Of a stretch of DNA of 64,000 nt, positions 4,313-61,517 are shown piece by piece; the stretch's first letter is position 1, and each line of letters opens with the position of its first letter. Source of the stretch: Verrucomicrobiota bacterium (GTDB lineage: Bacteria > Verrucomicrobiota > Verrucomicrobiia > Chthoniobacterales > UBA10450). The stretch spans positions 98,184-162,183 of the forward strand of contig QHNH01000017.1 in assembly GCA_003218375.1 (NCBI GenBank), in the 5' to 3' direction. A program made the translations under genes and the position numbers. The notes below the pieces were generated by a model. That model was not told where the DNA came from. It searched no databases and worked only from the letters and a program-made list of their open reading frames with translations.

Positions 4313-6537
4313 AAACGCGCATCGCGTCGATCCTGGCGACACTCGCGGTGCTGCTAATCGCGGGCGAACTCGCGCTGAGGCTCGTTCCGATTCCGGGAAC
4401 GTTGTTGCGACCACCGGTGCAAAGCATCGCGCTCCTGGATCGGCACGGCATCCCCCTCCGGGAAACTCGCGTCGCCGAGCGCTTCAGCCGCGAACTGGCG
4501 CTGGAAGATGTGCCCGCTCACGTCATTGCGGCAGTCCTCGCCGCCGAAGACAAACGCTTCTATTCCCACCATGGGATCGACTGGCTCGCTGCGGGCCGGG
4601 CCGGGTTCGAGGGTTTGAAGCATGGTCACATCGTTTCCGGTGCATCGACGATCACCCAGCAGCTCGTAAAGATTTCCACTCATCGCCCGCGGAACTTGCG
4701 GGCGAAATTAATCGAGAGCGTCACCGCGCTTCGCCTCGAACAATCCTGGTCGAAAAACCAGATTCTCGCCGCTTACCTCAATCGCCTCGATTTCGGTAAC
4801 CTCAATATCGGGCTCGCGGCTGCCGCCGATTATTACTTCGGCAAACCGGTCTCCGATTTGAGCGATGCCGAAGGGGCGTTTCTGGCCGGACTGCCGAAAA
4901 ATCCCCGCAAACTGAACCCTCACCTCGCGCCCGAGGCCGCGCGCGGCCGTCAGCTCACTGTCCTCGAAAGGATGCGCGCCAATCATCAACTCGATCTGGC
5001 GCGATACGATGCCGCGATGGCCGAGCCGCTCACAATTCGCGCGCCGCAGCGCCGGTTTCGCGCGCCGCATTTCGTCGAAATGGTCCTGCGGCAATTGCCG
5101 GAGACGCCCGCCGCCGAATTGCGAACCACGCTCGACTTCCGTCTGAACGAACAGGTGGAAAAAATCGTGCGCGGCCGGCTCGCCCAGTTGCGCGAGCAGA
5201 ATGTTCGCAACGCCGCCGCGGTGGTGATCGACAACGCGACCGGTGACGTGATCGCGCTCGTCGGTTCCGAAAATTATTTCGAACCCGGAGCCGGACAGGT
5301 GAACGGTGCATGGGCCCAGCGCTCGGCCGGGTCGGCCTTGAAGCCGTTTACTTATTTGCTCGCGCTCGAACGCGGCGCGACCCCGGCCACGATGGTGGCG
5401 GACGTGCGGACAAGTTTCCCGGCGGCCGGCGGTTTTTATCGCCCGGAAAACTATAATCGCCGCTGTTACGGACCGGTCCGATACCGGACGGCGCTGGCCA
5501 GCTCGTTGAACATTCCGGCGGTGAAAGTGCTGCTCGCCGCGGGCGGGCCGGCCGCGTTGCACGAACGCTTGCGCGAGTGCGGCCTAACGACTCTGAATCG
5601 GCCCGCGGAAATTTACGGGCTTGGGCTCACCCTTGGGAATTGCGAAGCGCGGCTGCTCGAAATGACCAACGCCTACGCCAGCCTGGCGCGCCTCGGCGAG
5701 TTTCGTCCGTGGCGAGTGCTCAGCACGAGCACTTCTGCCGCGCACCGCTATTCGCGGCCGGAGCTAGTCTGGCAGATTGCCGATATTCTGAGCGACAATT
5801 CCGCGCGCACCCTGGCGTTCGGCATGAATTCCGCCCTGCGTTTCGATTACCCGGTCGCCTGCAAAACGGGCACGAGCACCGACTTCCGCGATAACTGGAC
5901 GGTCGGGTTCACGCCCGAATTTTCCGTCGGCGTTTGGGCCGGCAATTTCGATGGCGCGCCGATGCGCGAAGTTTCCGGGGTCACCGGCGCCGGCCCAATT
6001 CTTCACGCGATTTTTGATTATCTGCACGGCAATTATGGAACGACCTGGTACCGGACGCCGCCGGGAATCGTCGAGCGCACCATTCATCCGCTCACCGGAA
6101 AACTGCTCGCCGACGGCGACGCGCGCGGGGTCCGGGAAAAATTCATGGCCGATCGCCTGCCAGCCGCAGAATCCGCCACGGATTACGATCTTTCCGGCAA
6201 CGTCCAGCTCAACGCCGAATACGCCGACTGGTTTCGCAGCGCCGAAAACAGTTTGCACGACCGCGCTGTTCTGGCGACGGCTGCCGGCGAATTGCTGATC
6301 GCGTCGCCACTTCCCGGGAGCATCTACGTGGTCGATCCGGACGTGCCGTCGAGCCGCCGGATTCCGTTGATCGCGAACGGAAGCGCGAAAGTGGAATGGC
6401 AAAGCGATTCGCTCACCTGTCGTTCGGAAGCCGGCGTCGATTTCGCGCTGGCCAGGGAAGGCGAGCATCGCCTCGTCGTTACCGACCCGGCGACCGGACG
6501 CCGCGCGGAGACCCGGATTCGGATCCGGTTTCTGTAG
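4309..6537 (+). CDS. pbpC: Penicillin-binding protein 1C, bifunctional transglycosylase/transpeptidase
   Basis: A class A PBP of the PBP1C subgroup, polymerising and cross-linking peptidoglycan at the inner membrane. An N-terminal signal anchor covers about residues 5-25. The GT51 domain has catalytic Glu80 in AAEDKRFYSHHG and the ASTITQQLVK motif. The transpeptidase has SALK (nucleophile Ser342, Lys345), SLN (399-401) and KTGT (519-522). The last roughly 85 residues match the BiPBP C-terminal domain typical of PBP1C, starting near IASPLPGSIYVVDP. The GTG start overlaps the preceding A2M stop by four bases, so the two are translationally coupled. The TAG stop lies inside the palindromic repeat at 6532-6610. 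The length of 742 aa is normal for PBP1C. Confidence 0.96.
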   Translation: MKTRIASILATLAVLLIAGELALRLVPIPGTLLRPPVQSIALLDRHGIPLRETRVAERFSRELALEDVPAHVIAAVLAAEDKRFYSHHGIDWLAAGRAGFEGLKHGHIVSGASTITQQLVKISTHRPRNLRAKLIESVTALRLEQSWSKNQILAAYLNRLDFGNLNIGLAAAADYYFGKPVSDLSDAEGAFLAGLPKNPRKLNPHLAPEAARGRQLTVLERMRANHQLDLARYDAAMAEPLTIRAPQRRFRAPHFVEMVLRQLPETPAAELRTTLDFRLNEQVEKIVRGRLAQLREQNVRNAAAVVIDNATGDVIALVGSENYFEPGAGQVNGAWAQRSAGSALKPFTYLLALERGATPATMVADVRTSFPAAGGFYRPENYNRRCYGPVRYRTALASSLNIPAVKVLLAAGGPAALHERLRECGLTTLNRPAEIYGLGLTLGNCEARLLEMTNAYASLARLGEFRPWRVLSTSTSAAHRYSRPELVWQIADILSDNSARTLAFGMNSALRFDYPVACKTGTSTDFRDNWTVGFTPEFSVGVWAGNFDGAPMREVSGVTGAGPILHAIFDYLHGNYGTTWYRTPPGIVERTIHPLTGKLLADGDARGVREKFMADRLPAAESATDYDLSGNVQLNAEYADWFRSAENSLHDRAVLATAAGELLIASPLPGSIYVVDPDVPSSRRIPLIANGSAKVEWQSDSLTCRSEAGVDFALAREGEHRLVVTDPATGRRAETRIRIRFL

Positions 6538-6610
6538 CCGCCGCCCTCTGGGCGGCGTGGGATTGGCCGCCGCGATCGCTCTCACGCTTCGCATAGCGAA
6601 GCGGCTACAG
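6532..6610. repeat. Palindromic mini-element, CTGTAGCC family (copy 1)
   Basis: The ends are perfect 10-base inverted repeats, CTGTAGCCGC at 6532-6541 and GCGGCTACAG at 6601-6610. Inside are a GC hairpin (CGCCC/GGGCG) and a second hairpin CTTCGC-ATA-GCGAAG. The left end supplies the stop codon of pbpC. Related copies lie at 16016-16040 (right half) and 43739-43848. Confidence 0.85.
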
Positions 6611-6654
6611 AAGAGGTGCTTGACCCTGGCTCGAAAAAGCACAATCTCTCCGCT

Positions 6655-10304: not shown

Positions 10305-10401
10305 GGCGGCAGGTTAACGAAGGCCGTTCAGCGCGGAAAGTTTATTCGCGCCGCGAATCTTTCGTTGCAATCGGAGCGAGACGGAATACGCATTGCGCTC
10401 G

Positions 10402-11451
10402 GTGAAAACGGGAGAGAAAACCAGGGTGGCGGTCGTGGGGGCGTCCGGCTACACCGGCGAAGAGCTGGTGCGGCTGGTCCTGCGTCATCCGCACGCTGAG
10501 CTGACGGCCGTGACTTCGCGACAGTTCGCGGGGAAAAACCTCGCGGAAGTCTTCCCCCGCACGGCGCTTCATCCGGCGGCGAAGTCGTTGCCGTTCAGCG
10601 ATTCGTCGCCGGAAAAAATCGCGGCGGAAGCGGAGCTGGTTTTCCTCGCCCTGCCGCATGGCATCGCGGTCGATTTTGCCGCACCGCTCTTGAAGGCCGG
10701 CGCGCGCGTGATCGATCTCAGCGCGGATTTCCGGATCAGGAACCCGGCGATCTATCGCGAATTCTACTGCCACGAGCATGGCGCGCCGGATTTGCTGGCG
10801 GAGGCGGTCTATGGTTTGCCGGAAGTTTATCGCGACGCGATTCGCGGCGCGCGACTGGTGGGTTGTCCCGGTTGTTATCCGACCAGCATTTTGCTGCCGC
10901 TGATTCCGTTGCTGCGCCAGAAGCTGATCGAGCCGGCCAGCATTATTGCCAACAGCCTGAGCGGAGTGAGCGGCGCGGGCCGGAAAGCGGAGCTGGATTA
11001 TTTGTTTGTGGAATGCAACGAAAGCGTCCGGCCTTACGGCGTGCCGAAGCACCGGCATCTCGCCGAGATCGAACAGGAATTATCGATCGCAGCCGCCGCG
11101 ACGGTGACGATTCAATTCACGCCGCATCTGGTGCCGGTGAACCGCGGCATTTTGACGACTCTCTATCTCAGGCCGAGTGCCATTGGTCAGGACACGAAAC
11201 GAATCGAGGCCGCGTTCCGCGATAGTTACGAGACTGAAGCTTTTATTCGTTTGCTGGACGACAAAACGCTGCCCGATACAAAGAATGTCGTTGGTTCCAA
11301 TGTCGTCGAGATCGCGTGGCGCCACGATCCCCGCACCGGCCGGCTGATCGTGATGAGTGCCGAGGATAATTTGGTAAAAGGCGCGAGCGGACAGGCGGTC
11401 CAGTGTTTCAACATCATGTGCGGTTACGAAGAAACCGCAGGATTGCTGTGA
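10402..11451 (+). CDS. argC: N-acetyl-gamma-glutamyl-phosphate reductase
   Basis: Third step of arginine synthesis: NADPH-dependent reduction of N-acetylglutamyl phosphate to the semialdehyde. The N-terminal Rossmann motif is VAVVGASGYTGEEL. The catalytic Cys lies in GCPGCYPTS, and the C-terminal KGASGQAVQ is also typical. GTG 10402 is preferred because it leaves a short N-terminus before the nucleotide-binding strand; an in-frame TTG at 10393 adds three residues. It is the first gene of the argC-J-B-D-F run. It is separated from argJ by a palindromic element at 11464-11577, so the transcript must cross a strong secondary structure. Confidence 0.96.
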   Translation: MKTGEKTRVAVVGASGYTGEELVRLVLRHPHAELTAVTSRQFAGKNLAEVFPRTALHPAAKSLPFSDSSPEKIAAEAELVFLALPHGIAVDFAAPLLKAGARVIDLSADFRIRNPAIYREFYCHEHGAPDLLAEAVYGLPEVYRDAIRGARLVGCPGCYPTSILLPLIPLLRQKLIEPASIIANSLSGVSGAGRKAELDYLFVECNESVRPYGVPKHRHLAEIEQELSIAAAATVTIQFTPHLVPVNRGILTTLYLRPSAIGQDTKRIEAAFRDSYETEAFIRLLDDKTLPDTKNVVGSNVVEIAWRHDPRTGRLIVMSAEDNLVKGASGQAVQCFNIMCGYEETAGLL

Positions 11452-11463
11452 AGGCTAAATTCT

Positions 11464-11577
11464 GGGGAGCGCACGCGCCCTCGCGTGCTGATTTCGGCGC
11501 CTCGCCGAAATTCTCTACGGGAAAAGTTCGCGATCGCGAGGGCGCGATCGCCAGCACGCGAGGCGCGTGCGCTCCCC
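11464..11577. repeat. Cruciform mini-element between argC and argJ
   Basis: A 114-base composite palindrome. The outer arms are GGGGAGCGCACGCGCC (11464-11479) and its exact complement (11562-11577). A second arm pair, CTCGCGTGCTG and CAGCACGCGAG, extends the stem to about 26 pairs with one bulge. Two inner hairpins follow: ATTTCGGCG-CCT-CGCCGAAAT, and GCGATCGCG paired with CGCGATCGC. No ORF fits inside. It ends four bases before the argJ start, leaving no visible Shine-Dalgarno sequence there. Confidence 0.88.
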
Positions 11578-11581
11578 GGCG

Positions 11582-12901
11582 ATGAAGAACCGCGTCGACG
11601 GTTTCAAAACAATCCCCGGCTCGATCTGTGCGCCGCGCGGATTCAAAGCGGCGGCGGTCTCTTGCGATATCAAACGGCTCGGTACCGGCAAGGGTTCCGA
11701 GAAAGGCCGCAAAGACGATCTCGCGTTGATCGTGTCCGACGTGCCGGCGGCTGTGGCCGGAATGTTCACGACGAACCAGGTCTGCGCGGCTCCGGTAAAA
11801 GTGAGCGCCCGAAATGCCGCGGGAAAATTCGCCCGCGCGATTGTGGTTAACTCCGGGAACGCCAACGCCTGCACCGGGACGCGCGGAATGGCGGACGCCG
11901 AAAAGATGACGGAGCTCACCGCGCAAAGTCTCGACCTCGAAGCCCGCGACGTGCTCGTCTGTTCCACCGGCCGCATCGGCGTGCCGATGCCGATGGGGAA
12001 CTTGAAGCGCGGGATCGCGGCGGCGGCGCGCCGATTGTCCGGAACGCGTTTGAGCGCGCGCCAGGCCGCCGAAGCGATCATGACATCCGATACCCGGCGG
12101 AAAGAGATTGCCGTGGAATTCGATCTCGGCGGTGCCCGCGTTCGGTTGGGCGGAATTTGCAAAGGCGCCGGGATGATTCAGCCGGGGATGACTCCCAGCG
12201 GGAAAAGGCCCGCGGCCGGATTGCATGCGACGATGCTCGCTTTCCTCACGACGGATGCCGCGATCGAACCGGATTTTCTGAAAGAGGCGCTCGAGAAGAC
12301 AGTCGCCCAAAGTTTCAACTGTATCACTGTGGACGGTGACATGAGCACGAATGACACGGTGCTGATTCTCGCGAATGGATTGGCGAAGAATCCTCCCGGA
12401 GGGAATCTCAAAACTTTTCAGCGCGCTCTGGATTTCGTCGCGCTCGAGCTGGCGAAAATGATCGTGCGTGACGGCGAGGGCGTGACTCGCTTCATCACGT
12501 TGCATGTCCACGGTGCGCGTACAGCGGCGGACGCGGAAGCGGTCGCGCGCGCGGTTGCGAATAGCACGCTTGTGAAGACAAGCTGGTTTGGCGGTGACCC
12601 GAATTGGGGGCGGATTTTGTGCGCGATGGGTTATTCGAACGCGAAAGTGGACGAGGCGAAAATCGATGTCGGGTATAGCCGGTCGGGAAAAAATAAGATC
12701 ACGTTTGCAGTCCGTCGCGGCCAGCCGACTCGCATTGCCTTGCGAACCTTGGGTGCCATCGTCAGCCAGCCGGAATTCGATCTGCATATTTTCCTGAACG
12801 CGGGCCGGCACGATTGCGTCCTCTACACGAGCGATCTCACGGAAGAGTATGTGGAGTTTAATAAGGGCAACCTGAGCGATCCGAAATCGCTCGGCGGTTA
12901 G
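11582..12901 (+). CDS. argJ: Bifunctional glutamate N-acetyltransferase / ornithine acetyltransferase
   Basis: Recycles the acetyl group from N-acetylornithine to glutamate, and in bifunctional forms also uses acetyl-CoA. The enzyme is made as a precursor that cleaves itself between Ala216 and Thr217 in HATMLAF; Thr217 becomes the nucleophile of the beta chain. Other family motifs seen are VVNSGNANACTG, CSTGRIG and GGDPNWGRI. Compared with the usual order, where the PNM stretch runs straight into ATML, there is an insertion of about 12 residues (TPSGKRPAAGLH) just before the cleavage site. ATG 11582 is chosen over an upstream in-frame GTG (11567) that lies inside the palindromic element. The stop is nine bases before argB. 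Confidence 0.95.
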   Translation: MKNRVDGFKTIPGSICAPRGFKAAAVSCDIKRLGTGKGSEKGRKDDLALIVSDVPAAVAGMFTTNQVCAAPVKVSARNAAGKFARAIVVNSGNANACTGTRGMADAEKMTELTAQSLDLEARDVLVCSTGRIGVPMPMGNLKRGIAAAARRLSGTRLSARQAAEAIMTSDTRRKEIAVEFDLGGARVRLGGICKGAGMIQPGMTPSGKRPAAGLHATMLAFLTTDAAIEPDFLKEALEKTVAQSFNCITVDGDMSTNDTVLILANGLAKNPPGGNLKTFQRALDFVALELAKMIVRDGEGVTRFITLHVHGARTAADAEAVARAVANSTLVKTSWFGGDPNWGRILCAMGYSNAKVDEAKIDVGYSRSGKNKITFAVRRGQPTRIALRTLGAIVSQPEFDLHIFLNAGRHDCVLYTSDLTEEYVEFNKGNLSDPKSLGG

Positions 12902-12910
12902 CGCAAACCG

Positions 12911-13786
12911 ATGCAGGAGATCATCACCAAAGCCGGAACGTTGCTCGAGGCGCTGCCTTACATTCAGCGTTTTCGCAGCCAAATCTTCGTCGTGAAATAT
13001 GGCGGCAGCTTCATGGATTCGCCCGATCCGACCGAGCGCCACCGCGTGGCCCACGAGATCGTTTTCCTGGAAGCGGTCGGGATCAATCCGGTGGTCGTGC
13101 ACGGCGGCGGCAAGGCGGTCACGCGCGCGGTGGAAGCCGCCGGCCTGACGACCACATTTCTCCAGGGACAACGCGTGACTGATGAAGCCACCGTGAAACT
13201 GGTGGACGATGTCCTTTCCCGCCAAATCAATCCGGAAATCGTCGCGGCGATCGAGGAGCTCGGTGGCAAAGCACGCGGGTTCGCCGGATCCGAAGTTTTC
13301 CGGTGCCGGAAATTTTCGCCTAACGACAAGGACGGGAACCCAATCGATCTCGGGTTCGTCGGCGAAGTTTGCGAAGTGAATGTGGAACCGTTGCGCGAAT
13401 GCATCCGGCGCAGCATCACGCCGGTGATCAGCCCCACCGCGCGCGGCGAGGACGGCCTCATTTATAATTGTAACGCCGATATCGCCGCGGCGCGGACCGC
13501 GATCGCGCTCAAGGCGCGCCGGCTTGTTTTCATGAGTGACGTCCCGGGGTTGCTCCGCGAGCCGGGCGACCCAGATTCTCTGATGAGCCATTTGAGCGCG
13601 AGCGAAGTGCCGGAGTTGAAAGCGACCGGCGTCGTGGGCGAGGGGATGATTCCGAAAGTGGACAGCGCCGTGGCGGCGGTCCAGAGCGGCGTCGAGAAAG
13701 TGCAGTTCGTCGATGGCCGCGTGCCGCATTCGGTGTTGCTCGAAATTTTCACCGACGCGGGCGTTGGAACGGAGGTGGTCCTGTGA
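12911..13786 (+). CDS. argB: Acetylglutamate kinase
   Basis: Phosphorylates N-acetylglutamate with ATP, the second and commonly regulated step of arginine synthesis. Amino-acid-kinase fold: VVKYGGSF near the N-terminus, the VVVHGGGKAV glycine loop, CNADIAAA, and FMSDVPGLL with GVVGEGMIPKV near the C-terminus. The N-terminal helix (TKAGTLLEALPYIQRF) is the extension associated with arginine-sensitive hexameric enzymes, so feedback inhibition is plausible. It lies between argJ and argD; its TGA overlaps the GTG of argD. Confidence 0.96.
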   Translation: MQEIITKAGTLLEALPYIQRFRSQIFVVKYGGSFMDSPDPTERHRVAHEIVFLEAVGINPVVVHGGGKAVTRAVEAAGLTTTFLQGQRVTDEATVKLVDDVLSRQINPEIVAAIEELGGKARGFAGSEVFRCRKFSPNDKDGNPIDLGFVGEVCEVNVEPLRECIRRSITPVISPTARGEDGLIYNCNADIAAARTAIALKARRLVFMSDVPGLLREPGDPDSLMSHLSASEVPELKATGVVGEGMIPKVDSAVAAVQSGVEKVQFVDGRVPHSVLLEIFTDAGVGTEVVL

Positions 13787-15102
13787 AGATCGAGATGGCG
13801 GGGGAGATGAAGACGGTGAAGGCGGATCGGCTCAGCGAGATCCGGAAGCTCTTTCAACGCAATGTCGTTCCGACCTATGCGCGGTTCGATCTGGCGCTGG
13901 ATCACGGCGAGGGCAGTTACGTTTTCGATGTCGCCGGAAAACGCTATCTCGATCTTGGCGGCGGCATCGCCGTTTGCGCGCTCGGTCACGCGAATCCGGA
14001 AATCACCGACGCGCTCCTCGAGCAATCGCGAAAGCTGCTCCACGTCTCGAATCTTTATTTCACCAAGCCGCAGGCGCAGCTCGCGGAAGCACTCGTTAGG
14101 CTGATCGGGCCCGGCCGCTGTTTTTTTTGCAACAGCGGCGCGGAAGCGAACGAGGGGCTTTACAAGCTCGCTCGAAAATTTGGGCACGACGAAGGCCGCT
14201 ATGAAGTCTTGACGACCGACGGCTCGTTTCATGGCCGGACGCTGGCGGGGATCGCGGCGACCGGACAGGAAAAGGTGAAGAAGGGTTTCGAGCCGATGAT
14301 GGACGGCTTTCGCCAGGTGCCGTTCAACGATCTCGACGCTATGCGCGCCGCGATCACGCCGCAAACCGCGGCGATCCTGGTTGAATCGATCCAGGGCGAA
14401 AGTGGTATCACCGTCGCGACGCCGGAATATCTTCTCGGGCTGCGGAAACTTTGCGACGAGCGCCGACTCTTGCTGCTCCTGGATGAAGTGCAGGCCGGGC
14501 ATTTTCGCACCGGCCGTTTTCATGGCTGGCAGCGAGTCCTGGAGAATGTTAGCGATCCTCGTTCCCAAGTTGCACTTGGGAACGGAGCCGCCGAATTCTT
14601 ACCGGATGCCGTCTCGATGGCGAAATCACTCGGCGGCGGATTTCCGATCGGCGCGTTCTGGGTGCGCGAGCCCTACGCCGATCTGCTTGCGGCCGGCACG
14701 CACGCCACGACCTTCGGCGGCAATCCGCTTGGGTGCGCCGTGGCCTTGAAGGTCCTCGAGATTATCGAGCGCGATCAGCTCGCCGATAATGCGCGCGAGA
14801 TCGGCCGGTTCATCAACGGCGAGCTGCAAAGATTGATCCGCAAATTTCCTGCGGTGCTGAAGGAAGCGCGCGGTTTCGGTTTGATGATCGGGTTGGAATT
14901 TCGAGCCGATGCACCGGCTTTCGGCGGCAGCGAAAAACCTCCGGCCCTTCAGGTGGTGGAGCGGTTGCACGCTGCCGGTGTCCTGACGATTCCGGCCGGG
15001 ACTTCCGTCATCCGACTCTTGCCAGCTCTGAATCTGACTCGCCCAGAAGCGATGGAGGGATTGCGCGCGATCGAGGCTGTTGTCGCAGAGTTGGCGACCT
15101 GA
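13783..15102 (+). CDS. argD: Acetylornithine aminotransferase
   Basis: A class III PLP-dependent aminotransferase converting N-acetylglutamate semialdehyde to N-acetylornithine. Motifs: YLDLGGGIAVCALGH, FCNSGAEANE (phosphate site), DGSFHGRTLA, LLLDEVQAGHFRTG, and the PLP lysine Lys281 in MAKSLGGG. GTG 13783 overlaps the argB stop by four bases and is taken as the start; ATGs at 13795 and 13807 are alternatives. An unusual stretch of about 20 residues lies between HGWQR and FLPDAVSM (about residues 250-270). It contains a perfect DNA palindrome (14560-14584) read in frame as RSQVALGN. This looks like a small element inserted without breaking the reading frame, in a surface loop just before the active-site lysine segment. 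Confidence 0.95.
   Translation: MKIEMAGEMKTVKADRLSEIRKLFQRNVVPTYARFDLALDHGEGSYVFDVAGKRYLDLGGGIAVCALGHANPEITDALLEQSRKLLHVSNLYFTKPQAQLAEALVRLIGPGRCFFCNSGAEANEGLYKLARKFGHDEGRYEVLTTDGSFHGRTLAGIAATGQEKVKKGFEPMMDGFRQVPFNDLDAMRAAITPQTAAILVESIQGESGITVATPEYLLGLRKLCDERRLLLLLDEVQAGHFRTGRFHGWQRVLENVSDPRSQVALGNGAAEFLPDAVSMAKSLGGGFPIGAFWVREPYADLLAAGTHATTFGGNPLGCAVALKVLEIIERDQLADNAREIGRFINGELQRLIRKFPAVLKEARGFGLMIGLEFRADAPAFGGSEKPPALQVVERLHAAGVLTIPAGTSVIRLLPALNLTRPEAMEGLRAIEAVVAELAT
14560..14584. repeat. Short palindromic insertion inside argD
   Basis: Eleven-base arms CGTTCCCAAGT and ACTTGGGAACG are separated by TGC. It is read in frame inside argD, in a segment absent from the usual family pattern. I recognise this kind of palindrome as a dispersed repeat in bacterial genomes, but copy number here cannot be counted; no second copy was seen in the window. 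Confidence 0.75.
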
Positions 15103-15104
15103 CC

Positions 15105-16004
15105 ATGAAAAATCTTCTCAGCATCGAACAGCTAACGCGGGCGGAGATGGACGACATCTTCCGCGTCGCCGCGCTGCAAAAACAGAACCGCGGGAAGCAC
15201 ACAGAGTTTCCGCTGCGGGGCCAAAGCTGGGGCCTCATTTTTTCCAAGCCGTCCACCCGCACGCGCGTTTCGTTCGAGGTCGGCGTGCGCGAGCTGGGAG
15301 GCGAAACGATTTTCCTGAACCCGAACGACATTCAGCTCGGCCGCGGCGAGCTGATCAAAGACACGGCGCGTGTTTTGGGGCGCATGATTCACGGCGCGAT
15401 CATCCGCACCTTTGCCCAGGCCGACATCGAAGAATTCGCCGATTTCTCCGGCCTGCCGACGATCAATGCGCTGACTGACGACGAACATCCCTGCCAGATC
15501 CTGGCGGACATTTTTACCTTCCAGGAAAAACGAGAAAACATTGAAGGCAAGATCGTGACGTTCGTCGGCGATGCCGCTTCGAACACGGCGCGCTCGTGGA
15601 TGTTCGCGGCCGGGAAGATGAACTTCGAATTGCGCCTCGCGGCGCCGGCGAAATACCAACCCAGCGCGGAATGGTTGAAGCGCGCCGGCGGCAACGTCGT
15701 TTGCAATCCGAACCTGCAGGAAGCTGCGCGGGGCGCCGACGTCCTCTACACCGACATCTGGGTCTCGATGGGAAAGGAAGGCGAAGAAGCCCGGCGTGAA
15801 GCGGAATTGGGACCGTATTGGATCAATCGAGATCTGGTGAAGCTGGCGAAGCCGGAAGCGCTGGTCATGCATTGCCTGCCCGCGCACCGTGGCCAGGAAA
15901 TAGATGACGCGACGCTCGAAGCTCACGCGCAAACGATCTTCGATCAGTCAGAGAATCGTCTGCATGTGCAGAAAGCGGTGCTGCTGGCGGTGGTGGGTTC
16001 ATAG
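15105..16004 (+). CDS. argF: Ornithine carbamoyltransferase, anabolic
   Basis: Transfers the carbamoyl group from carbamoyl phosphate to ornithine, giving citrulline. The carbamoyl-phosphate site is FSKPSTRTRVSFE; the ornithine-side motifs are HCLPAHRGQE and the preceding YTDIWVSMGKE. The length of 299 aa is normal. It starts two bases after argD and is the last gene of the cluster; argG, argH and argA are not in the window. Its stop is followed closely by the right half of a CTGTAGCC-type palindrome shared with the convergent amylase gene, which may serve both transcripts as an end signal. Confidence 0.96.
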   Translation: MKNLLSIEQLTRAEMDDIFRVAALQKQNRGKHTEFPLRGQSWGLIFSKPSTRTRVSFEVGVRELGGETIFLNPNDIQLGRGELIKDTARVLGRMIHGAIIRTFAQADIEEFADFSGLPTINALTDDEHPCQILADIFTFQEKRENIEGKIVTFVGDAASNTARSWMFAAGKMNFELRLAAPAKYQPSAEWLKRAGGNVVCNPNLQEAARGADVLYTDIWVSMGKEGEEARREAELGPYWINRDLVKLAKPEALVMHCLPAHRGQEIDDATLEAHAQTIFDQSENRLHVQKAVLLAVVGS

Positions 16005-43731: not shown

Positions 43732-43738
43732 CGCTCTT

Positions 43739-43848
43739 CTGTAGCCGTCGCCCTGTGGGCGACGCCGATTGACCCGGCGACGTCATCGCCGCGCTTCGCA
43801 CCCGCCTTCGCCTAGGCTTCGGCGTGGCAGGCAGCGAAGCGGCTACAG
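43739..43848. repeat. Palindromic mini-element, CTGTAGCC family (copy 2)
   Basis: CTGTAGCCGT at 43739-43748 and GCGGCTACAG at 43839-43848 are the terminal inverted repeats (9 of 10 pairs). The hairpin GTCGCCC-TGT-GGGCGAC lies inside the left end, and a CGCTTCG/GCGAAGC pair near the right. It is the same architecture as 6532-6610 but about 30 bases longer. Confidence 0.85.
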
Positions 43849-43913
43849 AAGCACCTTTGCGCCTGCCCTGATTCAACGTAATAACTAACAGGCGTTTTGC
43901 GGCGCGCCGGAAC

Positions 43914-46475
43914 ATGAAACAGGTTTCTTCGAGCGGATTTTTTCAGGTGAAGGTGGCGGCGAGTTTCGCTTTGTTCTTCGCGGGCGCGTTGCTGGCAATG
44001 ATGGCATGGTCGTCCGCCGCCGGGCCAAAACTGACCGGAATCGCGGCGAAGATCGCGCCGGAAGTTTTGGCGCAAACAGCCCAGGGCGGCAGCGCTTCCA
44101 TTATAATCCTGCTCGCCGATCAGGCGAACGTGAGCGCGGCCCATGAAATGAAAGACCAGGATGCGCGCGGCTGGTTTGTTTACAACACCCTGACGCAACA
44201 CGCGGCCCGCACTCAGGCTGCGCTCCGCGCGGAACTCGAAGCGCGTGGCGTAAGTTATCAATCTTTTTGGGCGGCGAACATGATCGTCGCCACGGCGGAT
44301 CGCGCGTTGCTCGAATCGCTGGCCGCGCGCGAGGACGTGGCGCGGATCGATTCGAACAACGCCGTGCGCTGGATCGAGCCGCCGGAGCTGACGAATTTCA
44401 GCGTGGCCCCGAACAGTCCGAGCGCGCCGAACACGGCCGAATGGGGTGTGCAAAATGTGAACGCTCCGTCGGTCTGGGCCCTGGGGTTCACCGGGCAGGG
44501 GATGGTGATTGGCGATCAGGATACCGGCGAACGCTGGACCCACAACGCGCTGAAGCCGCGGTATCGCGGCTGGGACGGCACCACCGCCGATCACAATTTT
44601 AACTGGCACGATGCGATCCACACGGGTGGCGGCGTCTGCGGGCCGGACACCGTCGCGCCTTGCGACGACAGCGGTCACGGCACGCACACGGCCGGGACGA
44701 CTGTGGGTGACGACGGCGCCGGGAACCAGATCGGCGTCGCGCCCGGCGCGAAATGGATCGGCTGCCGAAACATGGACCAGGGTAATGGGACGCCGGCGCG
44801 TTACACGGAGTGTTTCCAGTTCATGATGGCGCCGACGGACCTGAACGGGAACAACGCCGATCCGACCTTGCGCGCACACGTGCTCAACAATTCGTGGGGA
44901 TGTCCGGCGAGCGAGGGTTGCACAACGCGCGCGGAGTTGGAGACGATTATCAACAACACGGAGGCCGCGGGCATTTTCGTTGTCGTTTCGGCCGGCAACT
45001 CGGGCTCCGGTTGCTCATCGGTGAGCGATGTACCGGCGATTTACAGCGCCTCGTTTTCCGTCGGCGCGTACGACATCAACAACACCCTGGCCGGCTTCAG
45101 CAGCCGCGGACCGAGCACCTACTATACGCCAAATCTGCTCAAGCCCAATATCTCCGCTCCCGGGGTGAATGTGCGCTCGAGCTATTATTCGGGGGACACG
45201 ACTTATGCTAACCTGAGCGGTACTTCGATGTCCGGCCCGCACGTGGCGGGTGTCGTCGCGCTGGTCTGGTCTGCCCGTCCGCAATTGGTGCGCGACATCG
45301 CCGCGACCAAATCACTTCTCCAGAGCACGGCGAACCCTTCGGTAACGGTGACGCCGCCCCAGCTTTGCGGTGGAACGTTATCTACGACCGACATCCCGAA
45401 CAACTCTTTCGGCTACGGCCGGGTCGATGCGCTCGCGGCGGTGAATGCCTCGGGTTCACCGACGCCAACACCTACAGCCTCACCGACACCGACCGCGACC
45501 GCCACAGCTACAGCGACAGCTACAGCAACAGCAACGGCGACTCCTACTGCCACGGCCACAGCGACACCGACTGCCACGGCCACAGCGACACCGACTGCCA
45601 CCGCCACGGCAACCCCAACTGCAACCGCGACTGCGAGTCCTACTGCAACCGCTACGACTACACCTACCGCGACACCTACCGCCAGTCCGACACCTAGTCC
45701 TTCCACCGTCCTCGGGAATGTCTCGTCGCGCCTTCGCGTCGAAACCGGCGACAACATCCTGATCGGCGGCTTCATCGTTACCGGAACGCAGGATAAGAAG
45801 GTCGTGGTGCGGGCTCTGGGTCCGTCGTTGAATTTGCCGGGCAAACTGGCGAATCCGACGCTGGAGCTGCGCGATTCCGCCGGCGGCCTGGTGCAGGTGA
45901 ACGATGATTGGTCAACGTCGCCGAACCGTCAGGCGATCATCGACAGCGGCCTCGCGCCCAGCAACGACCTCGAGTCAGCGATCATTGCCACGTTGTCGGC
46001 AAACGGAAAGGCCTACACCGCGATCGTGCGCGGAGTTGGCGGCACCACCGGAACCGGAGTCGTGGAGGTTTACGACATCGATCGCTCCGTCGATTCGAAG
46101 CTGGCGAATATTTCGACACGCGGGTTTGTCCAGACCGGCGACACCATCCTGATCGCGGGAACGATTGTCGTGGGCCAGGCATCGCAGAAAGTCATCGTCC
46201 GCGCGATTGGCCCGTCCTTGAACATTGCCGGTAAACTGGCGGATCCGATACTGGAGTTGCGAGACGCCAATGGAGCGTTGATTCGGGCTGACGATAACTG
46301 GCGCACTGGCGGCCAGGAGACTGAGATCATGCAATCGGGAGTGGCGCCGACGAACGACCTGGAGTCCGCGTTGATCGAAACACTTCCAGCGAACAACGCC
46401 GCCTACACCGCGATCGTCCGCGGCATAAATAACACGACCGGCATCGCGGTGGTGGAAGTTTACGCGCTGAATTGA
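43914..46475 (+). CDS. Exported subtilisin-like serine protease with twin C-terminal domains
   Basis: 853 aa. An N-terminal signal or anchor (about 13-35) precedes an inhibitor-like propeptide region (SASIIILLADQ). The S8 catalytic domain (about 180-510) has Asp203 in DQDTGE, His255 in DSGHGTHTAG and Ser438 in SGTSMSGPHVAG. A Pro-Thr-Ala linker (about 515-595) and two copies of the roughly 120-residue domain follow, ending VEVYALN. All three catalytic residues are present. A kinase/sigma pair follows on the same strand about 225 bases later, separated by a hairpin element. Secretion and surface attachment through the twin domain are inferred. Confidence 0.93.
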   Translation: MKQVSSSGFFQVKVAASFALFFAGALLAMMAWSSAAGPKLTGIAAKIAPEVLAQTAQGGSASIIILLADQANVSAAHEMKDQDARGWFVYNTLTQHAARTQAALRAELEARGVSYQSFWAANMIVATADRALLESLAAREDVARIDSNNAVRWIEPPELTNFSVAPNSPSAPNTAEWGVQNVNAPSVWALGFTGQGMVIGDQDTGERWTHNALKPRYRGWDGTTADHNFNWHDAIHTGGGVCGPDTVAPCDDSGHGTHTAGTTVGDDGAGNQIGVAPGAKWIGCRNMDQGNGTPARYTECFQFMMAPTDLNGNNADPTLRAHVLNNSWGCPASEGCTTRAELETIINNTEAAGIFVVVSAGNSGSGCSSVSDVPAIYSASFSVGAYDINNTLAGFSSRGPSTYYTPNLLKPNISAPGVNVRSSYYSGDTTYANLSGTSMSGPHVAGVVALVWSARPQLVRDIAATKSLLQSTANPSVTVTPPQLCGGTLSTTDIPNNSFGYGRVDALAAVNASGSPTPTPTASPTPTATATATATATATATATPTATATATPTATATATPTATATATPTATATASPTATATTTPTATPTASPTPSPSTVLGNVSSRLRVETGDNILIGGFIVTGTQDKKVVVRALGPSLNLPGKLANPTLELRDSAGGLVQVNDDWSTSPNRQAIIDSGLAPSNDLESAIIATLSANGKAYTAIVRGVGGTTGTGVVEVYDIDRSVDSKLANISTRGFVQTGDTILIAGTIVVGQASQKVIVRAIGPSLNIAGKLADPILELRDANGALIRADDNWRTGGQETEIMQSGVAPTNDLESALIETLPANNAAYTAIVRGINNTTGIAVVEVYALN
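45461..45705 (+). repeat. Degenerate tandem repeat coding a Thr-Ala-Pro linker
   Basis: Units of the CCGACTGCCACGGCCACAG kind, 12-24 bases long, are iterated for about 240 bases and encode [11 protein letters not shown]-like sequence between the protease and the twin domains. Length variation between strains is likely. Confidence 0.8.
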
Positions 46476-46478
46476 AGA

Positions 46479-46538
46479 ATGGAGGGACGCCCGCTGGGCG
46501 TCCTCGGAATATGGGACGGACAGCGCCCGTCCCTCCAT
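46479..46538. terminator. Hairpin element after the subtilase gene
   Basis: Arms ATGGAGGGACG (46479-46489) and CGTCCCTCCAT (46528-46538) enclose a smaller hairpin CGCCC-GCT-GGGCG. It starts four bases after the subtilase stop. There is no T-run, so it may be a dispersed palindrome acting as an end signal rather than a classic terminator. Confidence 0.6.
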
Positions 46539-46543
46539 GGCCC

Positions 46544-46588
46544 GCAATTCTGCGCGGCGTGAACAACACGACGGGCATTGCCGTCGTC
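46544..46588 (+). pseudogene. Orphan piece of the twin C-terminal domain (2)
   Basis: The frame reads AILRGVNNTTGIAVV, identical to the end region of the protein at 52930 up to the last residues. It then diverges (CFPAKP) with no stop at the expected place. No other part of the domain surrounds it. Confidence 0.8.
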
Positions 46589-46700
46589 TGTTTTCCGGCC
46601 AAACCCGGCTGGGCCGTGAGCTGGCGCGAATCTATCGCTTTAATTTTTTCTGCCCTTTTTGCTCTCGTATTTCGCATTGGAGAGCGGATGATTTCGTTCG

Positions 46701-49541
46701 ATGAATGATCCCCCGAATCGCGAAGTGCTCGTGTTCAATGCGGCCTTGCAATTGCCTGCAAACGAGAGGGTCGGCTACCTGAGCGAAGCCTGTCGTTGCG
46801 ATATCGAACTGCACAGCCGCGTCGCAGCATTGCTTGTAGCGCACGAACGAGCGGGCACTTTTCTCCAGGAACCAGCCGATAGACCGCCAGCATCCTCAAT
46901 GGCGGCCGCTGCGCGACAGGCGAATCCCCGGCGGCGCCGGCTCGCGCCGGCGGGGGAAATCTCCGGCGATCACGCCGGGCGCTACAAACTACTCCAGCAA
47001 ATCGGCGAAGGCGGCTGCGGCATCGTCTATATGGCCGAACAGGAACAACCGGTCCGCCGGCGCGTGGCGCTCAAGGTCATCAAGCTCGGCATGGACACCA
47101 AACAAGTCATCGCCCGTTTCGAAGCGGAGCGGCAGGCACTGGCGCTGATGGACCATCCGAACATCGCCAAAGTGCTCGATGCCGGTGCCACCGAGACCGG
47201 CAGGTCTTACTTCGTCATGGAACTGGTGCGGGGCGTGAAGATCACCGATTTCTGCGATCAGAACGGACTTCCGACCGAAGCGCGGCTCCGATTGTTCATC
47301 CAGGTTTGTCACGCCATCCAACACGCACATCAGAAAGGCGTCATTCACCGCGACATCAAACCGACCAACATTCTAGTAACCGTGAATGACGGCGTGGCGG
47401 TCCCCAGGGTGATTGATTTCGGCATCGCAAAAGCGACGCAGGGTCGGCTCACCGATCAGACGCTCTTCACCGCGTTCGAGCAATTCATCGGCACGCCGGC
47501 TTACATGAGCCCGGAGCAAGCCGTGTTGACGAGCGTGGAAGTGGACACTCGCAGCGACATCTACAGTCTGGGCGTGCTGCTCTACGAATTGCTCACGGGC
47601 CAAACGCCTTTTGCCCAAAAGGACCTGCTCGCGTCAGGGCTGGATGAAATGCGGCGTACGATTTGCGAGAAAGATCCCGTTCGTCCTTCCACGCGGCTTA
47701 GCGCGATGGTGCCGAATGATCTGGCAACGGTGGCCTGCAATCGTCAATCCGAACCGCCACAGTTGATTCATCTGGTGCGCGGCGATTTGGACTGGATTGT
47801 CATGAAGTGTTTGCAGAAAGACCGCACCCGTCGCTATGAAACCGCGAATGCATTGGCGATCGACCTCGAACGGCACCTGAACCACCAACCGGTTCTGGCG
47901 CGCCCGGATACTCGGGCTTATCGGATTGCGAAATTTGTTCGCCGCCATCGCGCGGCCGCGACGTTTGCCGCGGTTGTTTTCATTGCTTTGATCGGCGGCT
48001 TGACCGGCACGATCACGCAGGCCCAGCGGGCGACGCGGCAGGCTGCCTTAGCGGAAAAGCAGCGTCATCGGGCTGACGAACAGGCGCGCGCGGCCAACGC
48101 GGAACGCGACTTCGCACTACGCCAGCTTTCCCGTGCCGAAGCCATCAATGACTTAAACACGTTCCTGCTCTCTGACGCCGCGCCGTCCGGCAAACCTTTT
48201 ACTGTAGGTGAACTGCTCGCGCGCGCCGAACGGATCGTTAACCGGCAATCGGGTGAGACCGACGAAAACCGAGTCGAACTCCTGATGGCGATCGGCCGCC
48301 AATATCAGGTCATGGACGAGCTTTCCAAAGCGCGCGAGTTGCTCGAGAAAGCTTACGCGCTCTCGCGCAATGTTAAGGAGCCGGCGGTTCGCGCGAAGGC
48401 CGCCGCCGCCTTGGGCGATGCACTCTCGCTAGCCGGTCAACACGAGCGTGGCGAGAGCCTTGTCACCGAAGGGCTGGCCGAATTGGGCGAGTTGCCGCAG
48501 TACGTATTGCCTCGCGTTTTTTGTCTTCTGCGCGGCAGCCATGTCGCGCGAGAGAACGGCAAATCGGGGTTGGGGCTGGAGCGCGTCATGACGGCGCAAC
48601 GACTTTTGCGGGAGTCAGCGCAGGGATCCCCACTGCTCGACCTGACGGTGGCGATGGACGTTGCCGAGTCCTATCGCTTGGCGGGGCGGCATCGCGAAGC
48701 GGCGGACGCCTTTGCAGCGGCCTTCAAACAGCTCTCCGCGCTCGGGCGCGACGACACGGATAAAGCTGCCACATTGCTGAACAATTGGGCTCTGGCAGTC
48801 GAAGTGCTCGGCCAACCACTCGAAGCCGAGCGGCTCTATCGGCGCGCGATTGCCATCGACATTGCCGAAGGAAACGAGGAAAGCGTTTCGCCGATGGTGC
48901 TCAATAATCTCGCGCGCGTCCTTGTTGAGCTGCGGCGATTCTCTGAAGCTGCCGACTACGCCGAGCGCGCATACGCCAAGGCGCAACGCGCCGGCGCGGA
49001 AAATGTGGTAAACCTTTCGCTTTACGTCCGAGGGTGCGCTTATCGGGACCTCGGCGACTTCACCCGCGCCGCGGAAATGTTTAACCAGGTCGAAGCGCGA
49101 TGGAAGCGCACGATGCCAAGCGGACACTTGGTTTTTGCCTCGCTCGCGTCACAGCGCTCACTGCTGACGCTGGCCATGGGCGATGCTCAGGCCGCGCTGG
49201 TGCAGGCGGAGCAGGCTGTCGCCCTTGCCGAAGCGAACCCGGCGGCTCACGACCACCTGAAGAGTTACCTTTTACGACGAGCCAATCTCCGGATGCAGTT
49301 GCAGAAGGTCGAAGAATCGCGAGCTGACGCGGCGCCGGTATTGGCCCTGCAACAAGCAGACGTTGGCACGAATTTTCTCTCATCTCTCATCGGTCGCGCT
49401 CATCTCGCATTGGGCCGCGCGTTGCGCGCACAAGGCAAGCTCGAAGAAGCGCGGGCGGCGTATGCGTCCGCGGTCGAACATTTGGAACCGACGCTCGGCA
49501 AGGATCATCCGGAAACGGTTGAAGCAGCGCGAGGCCCGTAG
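46701..49541 (+). CDS. Transmembrane Ser/Thr protein kinase with TPR region
   Basis: 946 aa. The N-terminal about 90 residues have the short helical segment often preceding such kinases (LSEACRCDIELHSRVAALL). The kinase domain (about 94-390) shows IGEGGCGIVY, Lys125 in VALKVI, HRDIKPTN with Asp218, DFG at 239-241 and GTPAYMSPEQ. A transmembrane helix at about 412-432 leads into a coiled-coil (KQRHRADEQARAANAERDF) and a long TPR-like helical region (about 480-940). It is followed, after a palindromic element, by a TIGR02999-type sigma factor, so the two form a regulatory pair. It lies between an exported protease and a row of exported beta-helix proteins, its likely regulon. Confidence 0.92.
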   Translation: MNDPPNREVLVFNAALQLPANERVGYLSEACRCDIELHSRVAALLVAHERAGTFLQEPADRPPASSMAAAARQANPRRRRLAPAGEISGDHAGRYKLLQQIGEGGCGIVYMAEQEQPVRRRVALKVIKLGMDTKQVIARFEAERQALALMDHPNIAKVLDAGATETGRSYFVMELVRGVKITDFCDQNGLPTEARLRLFIQVCHAIQHAHQKGVIHRDIKPTNILVTVNDGVAVPRVIDFGIAKATQGRLTDQTLFTAFEQFIGTPAYMSPEQAVLTSVEVDTRSDIYSLGVLLYELLTGQTPFAQKDLLASGLDEMRRTICEKDPVRPSTRLSAMVPNDLATVACNRQSEPPQLIHLVRGDLDWIVMKCLQKDRTRRYETANALAIDLERHLNHQPVLARPDTRAYRIAKFVRRHRAAATFAAVVFIALIGGLTGTITQAQRATRQAALAEKQRHRADEQARAANAERDFALRQLSRAEAINDLNTFLLSDAAPSGKPFTVGELLARAERIVNRQSGETDENRVELLMAIGRQYQVMDELSKARELLEKAYALSRNVKEPAVRAKAAAALGDALSLAGQHERGESLVTEGLAELGELPQYVLPRVFCLLRGSHVARENGKSGLGLERVMTAQRLLRESAQGSPLLDLTVAMDVAESYRLAGRHREAADAFAAAFKQLSALGRDDTDKAATLLNNWALAVEVLGQPLEAERLYRRAIAIDIAEGNEESVSPMVLNNLARVLVELRRFSEAADYAERAYAKAQRAGAENVVNLSLYVRGCAYRDLGDFTRAAEMFNQVEARWKRTMPSGHLVFASLASQRSLLTLAMGDAQAALVQAEQAVALAEANPAAHDHLKSYLLRRANLRMQLQKVEESRADAAPVLALQQADVGTNFLSSLIGRAHLALGRALRAQGKLEEARAAYASAVEHLEPTLGKDHPETVEAARGP

Positions 49542-49552
49542 CGGCATTTGTC

Positions 49553-49679
49553 GGAACATAGACTTGCAGTCTGTGCGCCCAGCGGGTTTGCAACCCGCTG
49601 TAACCCAACAATCCACGCCTTGAATCTCCAGCAGCGGACAACATGTCCGCTGGGCATACAGGCCAAAGGCCTATGTTCC
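49553..49679. repeat. Composite palindromic element between kinase and sigma genes
   Basis: The ends are GGAACATAG and CTATGTTCC. Inside are hairpins CAGCGGGTTTGCAACCCGCTG (as arms CAGCGGGTT/AACCCGCTG) and AGCGGACA/TGTCCGCT. CCCAGCGG and CCGCTGGG can also pair across the element. There is no ORF. It starts about 12 bases after the kinase stop. Confidence 0.8.
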
Positions 49680-49750
49680 CATCGGGCCAAACTGTCCGTG
49701 ACAATCGTTCCGATTTTTGCCACCCTACTCGCCACAAATCTCCGCGAGGC

Positions 49751-50314
49751 ATGAGTGAGGCTACCCTTCTGCTCAACGCAATTGAAAGCGGCGACGCGAA
49801 AGCCGCCGATCAAGTGTTGCCGCTGGTCTATGAAGAATTGCGCCGCCTCGCTGCGAGCAAGATGGCCAATGAAGCCGCGGGCCACACCCTGCAACCGACC
49901 GCGCTGGTCCACGAGGCCTGGCTGCGGCTCGTCGGCGACCACACCCCAAGTTTTCAGAACCGTGCGCATTTTTTTGCGGCGGCGGCCGAGGCGATGCGGC
50001 GGATTCTCATTGACCACGCCCGGCAAAAGCGCGCCGTTCGCCACGGCGGCGGCCAGCAGCGTGTGGAGTTAGAGTATGTGGAGCTGCCTTTCCCGGGCGA
50101 CGACGACCAACTCCTTGCGGTGAACGACGCGCTCGAACAGCTCGCAACTGCACATCCGCTCGAAGCCGAGGTCGTGAAGCTGCGTTATTTCGTGGGCCTA
50201 ACGCATGATGAAACCGCTGAAGCGCTCGGCATTTCCTTGCGAACGGCAAAATATTATTGGGCCCACGCCCGGGCTTGGTTGTTCAACGAAATCACGTCGG
50301 CGGAATCAAAGTGA
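49751..50314 (+). CDS. ECF-type RNA polymerase sigma factor (TIGR02999 type)
   Basis: 187 aa from ATG 49751; a longer in-frame start at 49643 lies in the palindromic element and is rejected. Region 2 includes VLPLVYEELRRLAASKM and the subgroup signature HTLQPTALVHEAWLRL. The segment FFAAAAEAMRRILIDHAR follows. Region 4 is VVKLRYFVGLTHDETAEAL with helix-turn-helix GISLRTAKYYWAHARAWL. The subgroup is typical of Planctomycetes and Verrucomicrobia and is often paired with Ser/Thr kinases, as here (46701). The first beta-helix exoprotein gene starts 220 bases downstream on the same strand. Confidence 0.9.
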   Translation: MSEATLLLNAIESGDAKAADQVLPLVYEELRRLAASKMANEAAGHTLQPTALVHEAWLRLVGDHTPSFQNRAHFFAAAAEAMRRILIDHARQKRAVRHGGGQQRVELEYVELPFPGDDDQLLAVNDALEQLATAHPLEAEVVKLRYFVGLTHDETAEALGISLRTAKYYWAHARAWLFNEITSAESK

Positions 50315-50533
50315 CTTTGTAGGCGGCGTTCCCTGACGGCCACGGTCTTGGCCTTCTCCAGCAAGGCTCGCCAGGCAATGGCCATGCCGGAAGCGGTTCG
50401 GCAGTTCTTATCGACCTTCGGCGTTCTCGACCGGGCGTCTTCACTTCGTTTGCCCTTTCCTGCCGGAAATCTCGCATTGCCTAATGATGAAATGATTTTC
50501 TCGCCGTCAAAGACGCCTACCCAAGGAGCTGCC

Positions 50534-52780: not shown

Positions 52781-52929
52781 CAGTCGTGCGCCCTTTTTTA
52801 TTTTTCCTCTGCCGGCACACTGTCCGACAAACGCGGGACTTAGGTTTGCTCCTCGCGCCGCGTTTTGATCAAGAAGCAGGCCTGTGCCGATTTGAGGCCT
52901 TGAAACGGCGCCAACTATCTTGGCTGCGG

Positions 52930-55782: not shown

Positions 55783-55896
55783 GGACAAATCGCTCCCCAG
55801 ACCTCGATCCCTTGGGAGTGAGTTCCCGCCTTCATTCCGACCCCGAAAACATTCGGGGTTGCTTGCACTTTCCGGTCCGGAATCTCGCATTAGCTC

Positions 55897-60611: not shown

Positions 60612-60888
60612 AAAGTTTCAGAAAAATTCAGTCCCATCCTAAGGACTTTCAGACCGGTTTGTTGGAAAATTACCATGAAAGAACGGACCCCATCCCGTCA
60701 CCAACAAGAGTAACAAAACTAGAAAAAGAACCAAGAGAAAGAACGAAAACCAAGTGAAGACAAGCGCCCATGTCATCGCATTGGTCTGCATGGCGTTGGC
60801 TGGTGGGCAAATGCGCACGTGGGCCGGATCGTCACGGGCACGGGATAAAAAAGTCCCCCGGAGCCAAGGGAAGAAAAGGAACCGAATT

Positions 60889-61311: not shown

Positions 61312-61327
61312 CGCGCCACGAACCACC

Positions 61328-61464: not shown

Positions 61465-61517
61465 AATCGGACGCGGCCACCTCGGGGGTTGCAGCCGAAT
61501 AGTCTTTTGGGTTGTCG

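What the first reader, a model, noticed from the sequence alone, without database searches (positions are those of the whole stretch)
11464..11577. Large cruciform element inserted at the argJ start
A 114-base palindrome with a roughly 26-pair outer stem and two inner arms ends four bases before the argJ ATG, within an otherwise compact arginine operon. It removes any ribosome-binding site. It could lower or condition argJ expression, act as an RNA switch, or simply be a tolerated mobile element.
Basis: seen in the sequence. Interest (0 to 1): 0.55.

Follow-up and report, generated by a model that had tools for sequence, protein, structure and literature searches.

The report
Transposase-driven palindrome bridging argC and argJ
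The palindrome in front of argJ is one of about thirty copies of a small jumping element in this soil bacterium, and the enzyme that probably moves it is built, without breaking the reading frame, into the middle of the cell's own housekeeping enzymes.

Summary
The 114-nt palindrome is real and exactly where reported. It is one of 29 full-length copies (plus fragments) in the 3.96-Mb genome, each an inverted pair of double-hairpin ends: a REPIN-like miniature element. The same ends flank a 583-nt element coding for a REP-associated tyrosine transposase (RAYT; NCBIfam 89.5 bits, cut-off 80; nearest fold 4ER8) that lies in frame inside metH. Related RAYTs sit in frame inside RecG, MetH, AlaRS, ThrRS, CarB and PriA at recurring host positions across Verrucomicrobiota; in 98 relatives 55 of 61 strong hits lie in ORFs of 520 aa or more, without stops. 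At argJ, 5 of 6 readable same-genus genomes carry an element; G006 and five genomes of other genera do not. The insertion did not simply strip translation signals: in three species it is read as an ArgJ N-terminal extension; here a 45-codon ORF runs from argC's stop (GTGA) to argJ's ATG (ATGA). An RNA switch is not supported. I found no paper describing RAYTs embedded in host genes. Mobilisation in trans and translational coupling are inferred, not shown.

The parts
11464..11577 (+). REPIN-like palindromic element (inverted pair of double-hairpin ends)
   Evidence: sequence and fold; one of 29 full-length copies in the genome
11464..11488 (+). left end, hairpin 1: GGGGAGC GCACGCG-CCCT-CGCGTGC
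   Evidence: hairpin-1 stem GCACGCG/CGCGTGC in 46 of 58 ends of the copies; the type is also the end of the metH RAYT element
11491..11511 (+). left hairpin 2: ATTTCGGCG-CCT-CGCCGAAAT
   Evidence: fold; hairpin 2 fully paired over 8 bp in 51 of 58 arms with 16 different stems
11530..11551 (+). right hairpin 2: GCGATCGCG-AGGG-CGCGATCGC
   Evidence: fold; compensated variation across copies
11554..11577 (-). right end, hairpin 1 in inverse orientation
10393..11451 (+). argC (stop TGA 11449-11451)
   Evidence: ORF; NCBIfam TIGR01850 419.8 bits
11439..11442 (+). AGGA, possible Shine-Dalgarno sequence of the old argJ start, inside argC
   Evidence: read from the sequence; function inferred
11448..11585 (+). 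45-codon bridging ORF: GTG overlapping argC's stop, through the element, TGA overlapping argJ's ATG
   Evidence: translation; the same GTGA...ATGA arrangement in G005; translation itself not shown
11582..12901 (+). argJ, new ATG start 4 nt after the element
   Evidence: NCBIfam NF003802 431.8 bits; N-terminus compared with relatives
12911..16004 (+). argB, argD, argF, rest of the operon
   Evidence: ORFs; NCBIfam

Best explanation
The palindrome is a REPIN-like miniature element: the two ends of a RAYT transposon, each end being two hairpins, with the transposase gene missing between them. Shown: it is dispersed in this genome, the same ends bound a RAYT-coding element that lies in frame inside metH, and the argJ site is empty in a same-genus species and in other genera. 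Inferred: the resident RAYT (HUH/Y1 single-strand chemistry) cuts at such hairpins and moves the element in trans. The ends are poor in stop codons, so insertions in or next to genes can be translated as a linker. At argJ the insertion landed just behind the old start codon, which overlaps argC's stop. In three relatives the element is open in the argJ frame and would be an N-terminal extension of ArgJ. Here and in G005 the frame is shifted, and a 45-codon ORF leads ribosomes through the element to a TGA that overlaps a new argJ ATG, so coupling to argC would persist by termination-reinitiation (inferred). The RAYTs themselves live as in-frame domains of housekeeping enzymes, which probably keeps them expressed and hard to lose (inferred).
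For: Copies: L001-L029. Ends: the metH RAYT element (583 nt) has TCTGGGGAGCGCACGCGCCTCGCGTGC (TCC at the other end) plus a second hairpin at both ends. RAYT identity: NF047646 89.5 bits against cut-off 80; PDB sequence match 4er8 E 0.0026; predicted fold of a close homologue best matches 4er8, E 2.3e-7; HUH and Y kept in 81 of 85. Empty sites: G006 and G017, G019, G020, G023, G026. Hairpins: 51 of 58 arms fully paired with 16 stems, 98% pairing against 48% when right halves are re-dealt. RAYT-REP link: the five genus genomes with a GGGGAGCG-flanked RAYT have 52-122 pattern hits, the three without have 0, 7 and 0; the ACGCTTGYAGCGT type occurs only in G001 (22 hits, 0 in seven others), whose recG RAYT bears it. 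Stop-poor: 143 of 174 element frames open, shuffles 119 +/- 5.7, maximum 137. Embedding: 55 of 61 strong hits in ORFs of 520 aa or more; both flanks match the same host protein in 25 of 30 loci and for 58 of 82 RAYTs in 80 named loci. dN/dS 0.10-0.17 in the six pairs with dS below 1. Reading frames at argJ.
Against: G005 has ACGCG-type elements, also at argJ, but the only strong RAYT found there is flanked by the AGGCTGCC type, so a one-to-one pairing fails in 1 of 5. The tag next to the hairpin is TCT in 37 of 58 ends, not the GTAG of classical REPs. Because element frames are open 82% of the time, the open bridging frame alone could be chance. G006, the empty genome, groups with G000 and G005, so one insertion plus a loss, or two insertions, are both possible; left flanks of 12 and 20-21 nt leave it open. 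No transposition event was seen. In a phylum-wide draw only 6 of 193 genomes have this RAYT subfamily at E 1e-30.
Confidence: 0.82

Rival explanations
1. The element is a transcribed REP-like hairpin that tunes the operon: it blocks 3'-5' decay or pauses RNA polymerase between argC and argJ, so that argC and argJ-F are expressed at different levels.
For: Very stable RNA hairpin inside an operon; REPs are discussed as RNA elements (PMC3733652, passages and section 15 read).
Against: No terminator-like site (0 found); the site is empty in G006 and the hairpins differ between species, so no common regulatory sequence; the same elements lie at unrelated genes.
Confidence: 0.2
2. It is an arginine-responsive attenuator or riboswitch of argJ.
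For: Position directly before argJ, strong fold.
Against: No Rfam match at gathering thresholds; dispersed family with a matching transposase element; absent from the orthologous site outside the genus.
Confidence: 0.04
3. The RAYT domains are not mobile DNA any more but domesticated functional domains of MetH, RecG, AlaRS and the rest, and the palindromes are by-products.
For: RAYT lineages cluster by host site (21 label changes against 48.5 in shuffles, 0 of 200 as low); purifying selection.
Against: recG and metH of close relatives lack them; different RAYT lineages occupy the same recG site within one genus; several are flanked by ends that are dispersed in the same genome.
Confidence: 0.12

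Closest known systems
REPINs with RAYTs (Bertels and Rainey 2011, PMC3116915; passages read)
   Same: Inverted pair of palindromes forming a hairpin, conserved ends, variable inner part with compensatory changes, dispersed, associated with a RAYT flanked by the same palindromes.
   Different: Each end here is a double hairpin, the tag is TCT/GGGG and not GTAG-like, and the RAYT is mostly a domain inside host proteins.
TIRtrons / TIRYTs (Di Nocera et al. 2013, PMC3733652; sections 15, 16 and passages read)
   Same: RAYT-like gene with longer inverted ends, some with a GGGGWSAS motif, and dispersed families of those ends.
   Different: GGGGAGCG fits only the first part of GGGGWSAS; the passages read describe TIRYTs as genes, not as in-frame domains of host enzymes.
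Rickettsia palindromic elements and intragenic REPs (described in PMC3733652, section 15)
   Same: Palindromic elements translated in frame within protein-coding genes, including repair and tRNA-synthetase genes; Opitutus terrae, also a verrucomicrobium, has many.
   Different: There only the short palindrome is inserted; here the whole transposase comes with it and its ends match the dispersed elements.
Inteins
   Same: Mobile coding DNA carried in frame in conserved housekeeping proteins.
   Different: No Hint or intein domain found by Pfam in the five fused proteins scanned; no sign of protein splicing was sought beyond that.

Membership tests
REPIN | two REPs in inverted orientation forming a hairpin | tested here: met
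REPIN | dispersed, many copies per genome | tested here: met
   29 full-length loci; 30 forward and 22 reverse pattern hits
REPIN | compensatory changes in the stems | tested here: met
   16 different fully paired hairpin-2 stems in 58 arms
REPIN | GTAG-like tetranucleotide at the end | tested here: not met
   TCT 37, TCC 9, other 12 of 58
REPIN | mobilised in trans by the cognate RAYT | not testable with these tools
   only indirect: type correspondence
RAYT (NF047646) | curated profile score | tested here: met
   P0001 89.5 and whole MetH fusion 84.4 against 80; RecG fusion 68.9, AlaRS 56.3 and ThrRS 79.8 fall below
RAYT (NF047646) | HUH and catalytic tyrosine | tested here: met
   81 of 85; exceptions L166, L203, L217, L221
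RAYT (NF047646) | fold of TnpA-REP | tested here: met
   model of the L163 RAYT, core pLDDT mostly above 90; top PDB match 4er8
RAYT (NF047646) | gene flanked by two REPs in inverse orientation | tested here: met
   inverted ends of 19 nt or more (up to two mismatches) at 14 of 15 elements inspected; 16 nt at L163
RAYT (NF047646) | free-standing gene | tested here: not met
   6 of 61 strong hits only
TIRtron / TIRYT | GGGGWSAS in the ends | tested here: inconclusive
   GGGGAGCG matches GGGGWS, then C where A is expected
Rickettsia palindromic element | sequence relationship to RPE families | not tested
   RPE sequences were not compared
Intein | Hint/intein domain | tested here: not met
   none in five fused proteins
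Arginine riboswitch or attenuator | match to a described RNA family | tested here: not met
   0 matches at gathering score in the whole window

The most novel reading that the evidence does not exclude
Verrucomicrobiota harbour a class of protein-embedded transposons: RAYTs that persist as in-frame, obligately co-translated domains in the linkers of housekeeping enzymes (RecG, MetH, AlaRS, ThrRS, CarB, PriA) and from there feed populations of stop-poor REPINs, such as the one at argJ, whose insertions are themselves read through by ribosomes. Loss of the transposase by frameshift or stop would break the host enzyme, which would answer how non-proliferating RAYTs survive.
Probability: 0.5. Interest if true: 0.88.

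Novelty: new variant of a known kind. Interest (0 to 1): 0.74.

Why it matters
RAYTs are described as single-copy transposases that do not mobilise themselves, and what keeps them and their REPINs from extinction is called an open question (PMC3116915, passages read). Housing the transposase inside conserved enzymes is a concrete, testable answer, and it shows housekeeping enzymes carrying a folded transposase domain in a linker. The argJ case shows how a compact operon may absorb a 114-nt palindrome: either as part of the protein or as a small translated bridge that keeps stop-start coupling.

Tried and rejected
RNA families: none in the window at gathering score. Terminator or promoter at the junction: none. 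Target-site duplication: flanks of the copies are inverted (TCT..AGA), not direct repeats; compatible with IS200-like insertion but not proof. One ancestral insertion at argJ was considered; the tree puts empty G006 with G000 and G005, so I leave one-insertion-plus-loss against two insertions open. A one-to-one RAYT-REP type rule was considered and fails in G005. My notebook line that each species' argJ element has its own RAYT's type is therefore too strong (4 of 5), and its '27 pairs' for dN/dS should read 26; many of those have dS above 1 and are rough. Literature: searches listed no paper on RAYTs inside MetH, RecG or tRNA synthetases; most subscription papers and preprints are not in that library.

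Full report
Observation. The palindrome is at 11464-11577 as stated and ends four bases before ATG 11582. Its fold is far better than shuffles in RNA (z -10.7) and DNA (z -10.6). The operon is argC-argJ-argB-argD-argF.

It is a repeat. A search of the window's own genome (3.96 Mb, 52 contigs) gives 80 aligned pieces on both strands; 29 full-length copies of 109-137 nt, this one included, became loci L001-L029. Every one of them is an inverted pair of ends, each end being hairpin 1 (GGGGAGC GCACGCG..CGCGTGC) followed by hairpin 2. Hairpin 1 is nearly constant; hairpin 2 varies but stays paired: 51 of 58 arms are fully paired over 8 bp with 16 different stems, and pairing falls from 98% to 48% (maximum 59% of 1000) when right halves are re-dealt among copies. 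Element frames are open more often than in shuffles (143 of 174 against 119 +/- 5.7). Three of the 29 copies lie within recognisable genes: metH between its B12-binding and activation domains, and dnaE twice; two more lie in the N-terminal part of an ORF (Mur ligase, phosphoribosyltransferase) (ten of the eleven spanning ORFs listed were scanned, and five of these ten gave no Pfam family).

The transposase. Of 15 Y1_Tnp matches in the genome, one at C25:57360-57662 is bounded by the same ends. The element is 583 nt, and its ends carry hairpin 1 and hairpin 2 as in the argJ copy. Its product scores 89.5 with NCBIfam's REP-associated tyrosine transposase model (cut-off 80), matches E. coli TnpA-REP 4er8 by sequence (E 0.0026), and a close homologue (L163) is predicted with that fold (Foldseek top hit 4er8, E 2.3e-7).

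The surprise: it lies in frame inside metH, which reads through without a stop (Pfam shows Y1_Tnp between the S-methyltransferase and pterin-binding domains). In 98 relatives, 49 have a homologue at E 1e-12. Of 61 places at E 1e-30 (in 43 genomes), 55 lie in ORFs of 520 aa or more, six are free-standing at 211-234 aa, and none has an internal stop. Among the first 30 loci both sides match the same host protein in 25, one side in 3 (contig ends), and 2 are free-standing. In 80 named loci (82 RAYTs; these overlap the former set, and were fetched with an alignment of mostly embedded RAYTs, so the share is not an unbiased rate) both sides match in 58, one side in 12, none of my five references in 12. 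Of those last 12, three are PriA, two MmeI-like enzymes and one Ham1; five are free-standing (201-234 aa) and L241 has no recognised host; L242, half-matched to CarB, is an AICARFT/IMPCHase protein by Pfam. Host positions recur: RecG about 373-381, AlaRS about 458-465 and a second site about 331-341, ThrRS about 301-305, MetH about 363-368 and a second site near 603 of the C-part, CarB about 484-487. An even draw of 193 genomes of the phylum gave this subfamily in only 6, with 7 of 7 matches in ORFs of 730-1496 aa. One record is from a named strain, Ereboglobus sp. PH5-10, though its contig ends inside the gene.

Mobile or domesticated? HUH and Y are kept in 81 of 85. Nei-Gojobori dN/dS in 26 similar pairs is 0.05-0.17 where finite; in the six pairs with dS below 1 it is 0.10-0.17, one of these being a free-standing pair. 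RAYT lineages cluster by host site (21 changes against 48.5), yet recG is without a RAYT in G002 and G006 and holds only a decayed-looking remnant in G004, while G000, G001, G003, G005 and G007 carry RAYTs there, of different lineages and end types. metH site 1 has a RAYT only in G000 and G003 of 8; the other six genomes hold other palindromic inserts at that point. In 85 recG places with E at most 1e-35, 28 share a contig with a RAYT hit, with ORFs mostly 839-989 aa (shorter at contig ends), the other 57 mostly 640-830 aa. The AlphaFold model of a RecG fusion (L193, mean pLDDT 75) shows the RAYT fold at about 407-547 tethered by segments of pLDDT below 50 at 359-406 and 548-572, the REP-encoded parts.

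RAYT and repeat go together. The five genus genomes with a GGGGAGCG-flanked RAYT have 52, 69, 122, 99 and 64 hairpin-pattern hits (some overlap); the three without have 0, 7 and 0; the pattern was designed on known types, and G006 has a RAYT with other ends in thrS. The ACGCTTGYAGCGT type is found 22 times in G001 and never in the other seven, and G001's recG RAYT has it. Against this, G005 has many ACGCG-type repeats but no RAYT of that type was found.

The argJ site. Of 8 genus genomes, 6 could be read (G002 and G004 gave no argC match). Five are occupied, G006 is empty, and so are G017, G019, G020, G023 and G026 of other genera. In empty G006, G017, G019, G020 and G026 argJ starts at GTG or TTG overlapping argC's stop. 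In G001, G003 and G007 that start is in frame with ArgJ through the element (G001 has a run of N inside). In G000 and G005 that frame runs 45 codons and ends in TGA overlapping a new ATG. The element's type matches a resident RAYT in G000, G001, G003 and G007, not in G005. The ArgC+ArgJ tree groups G006 with G000 and G005.

Identity of the organism. G005's contig C41 (196,246 bases) has the length and RAYT place of PLCM01000015.1, Spartobacteria isolate palsa_1414, so the window is from the same genus, a Chthoniobacterales-type lineage of Verrucomicrobiota; this is an inference from contig identity.

Known or new. REPINs, RAYTs, TIRtrons and in-frame intragenic REPs are known (PMC3116915 passages; PMC2817692 passages; PMC3733652 sections 15 and 16 and passages; PMC6006769 and PMC8049555 passages). 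None of the passages read, and no paper listed, judged by title and start of abstract, describes RAYTs as in-frame domains of MetH, RecG or tRNA synthetases. I rate it a new variant of a known kind.

Shown: repeat family, matching RAYT element, in-frame embedding with host domains on both sides, covariation, empty sites, reading frames. Inferred: trans mobilisation, translation of the bridge, passenger status of the RAYT domain, and the persistence argument.

Noticed in passing
metH site 1 in G000-G007 (L243-L250): All eight genomes of the genus carry a palindromic insert in the same MetH linker, of several different palindrome types, all in frame: a recurrent landing site.
   Followed up: partly
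ArgJ near residue 275 in G003, G005, G007 (L085, L084, L086); ArgJ near residue 115 in G006 (L081): Other palindromic families inserted in frame within ArgJ itself; in G005 one element is nested in another, still in frame.
   Followed up: partly
window 6530-6612, 43736-43851, 46479-46538: Other long palindromes; the first two have TTCTGTAGC...GCTACAGAA ends, like the element nested in G005's ArgJ; genome copy number not counted.
   Followed up: no
L181 1098-5717: A Pedosphaera AlaRS ORF of 1540 aa holds two different RAYT domains.
   Followed up: no
L016 (G000:C25:55250-55368) and L165, L167, L177: The second MetH site holds a REPIN-like element in G000 and a whole RAYT element in other genomes.
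   Followed up: partly
L027-L029 (G000): A second repeat subtype, GGGTAGCGCACGCGTCTCGCG, resembles the ends of the RAYT in G000's recG.
   Followed up: partly
window 45700-64000: Large array of coding repeats: 390-nt spaced repeats and many 56-66 nt repeats.
   Followed up: no
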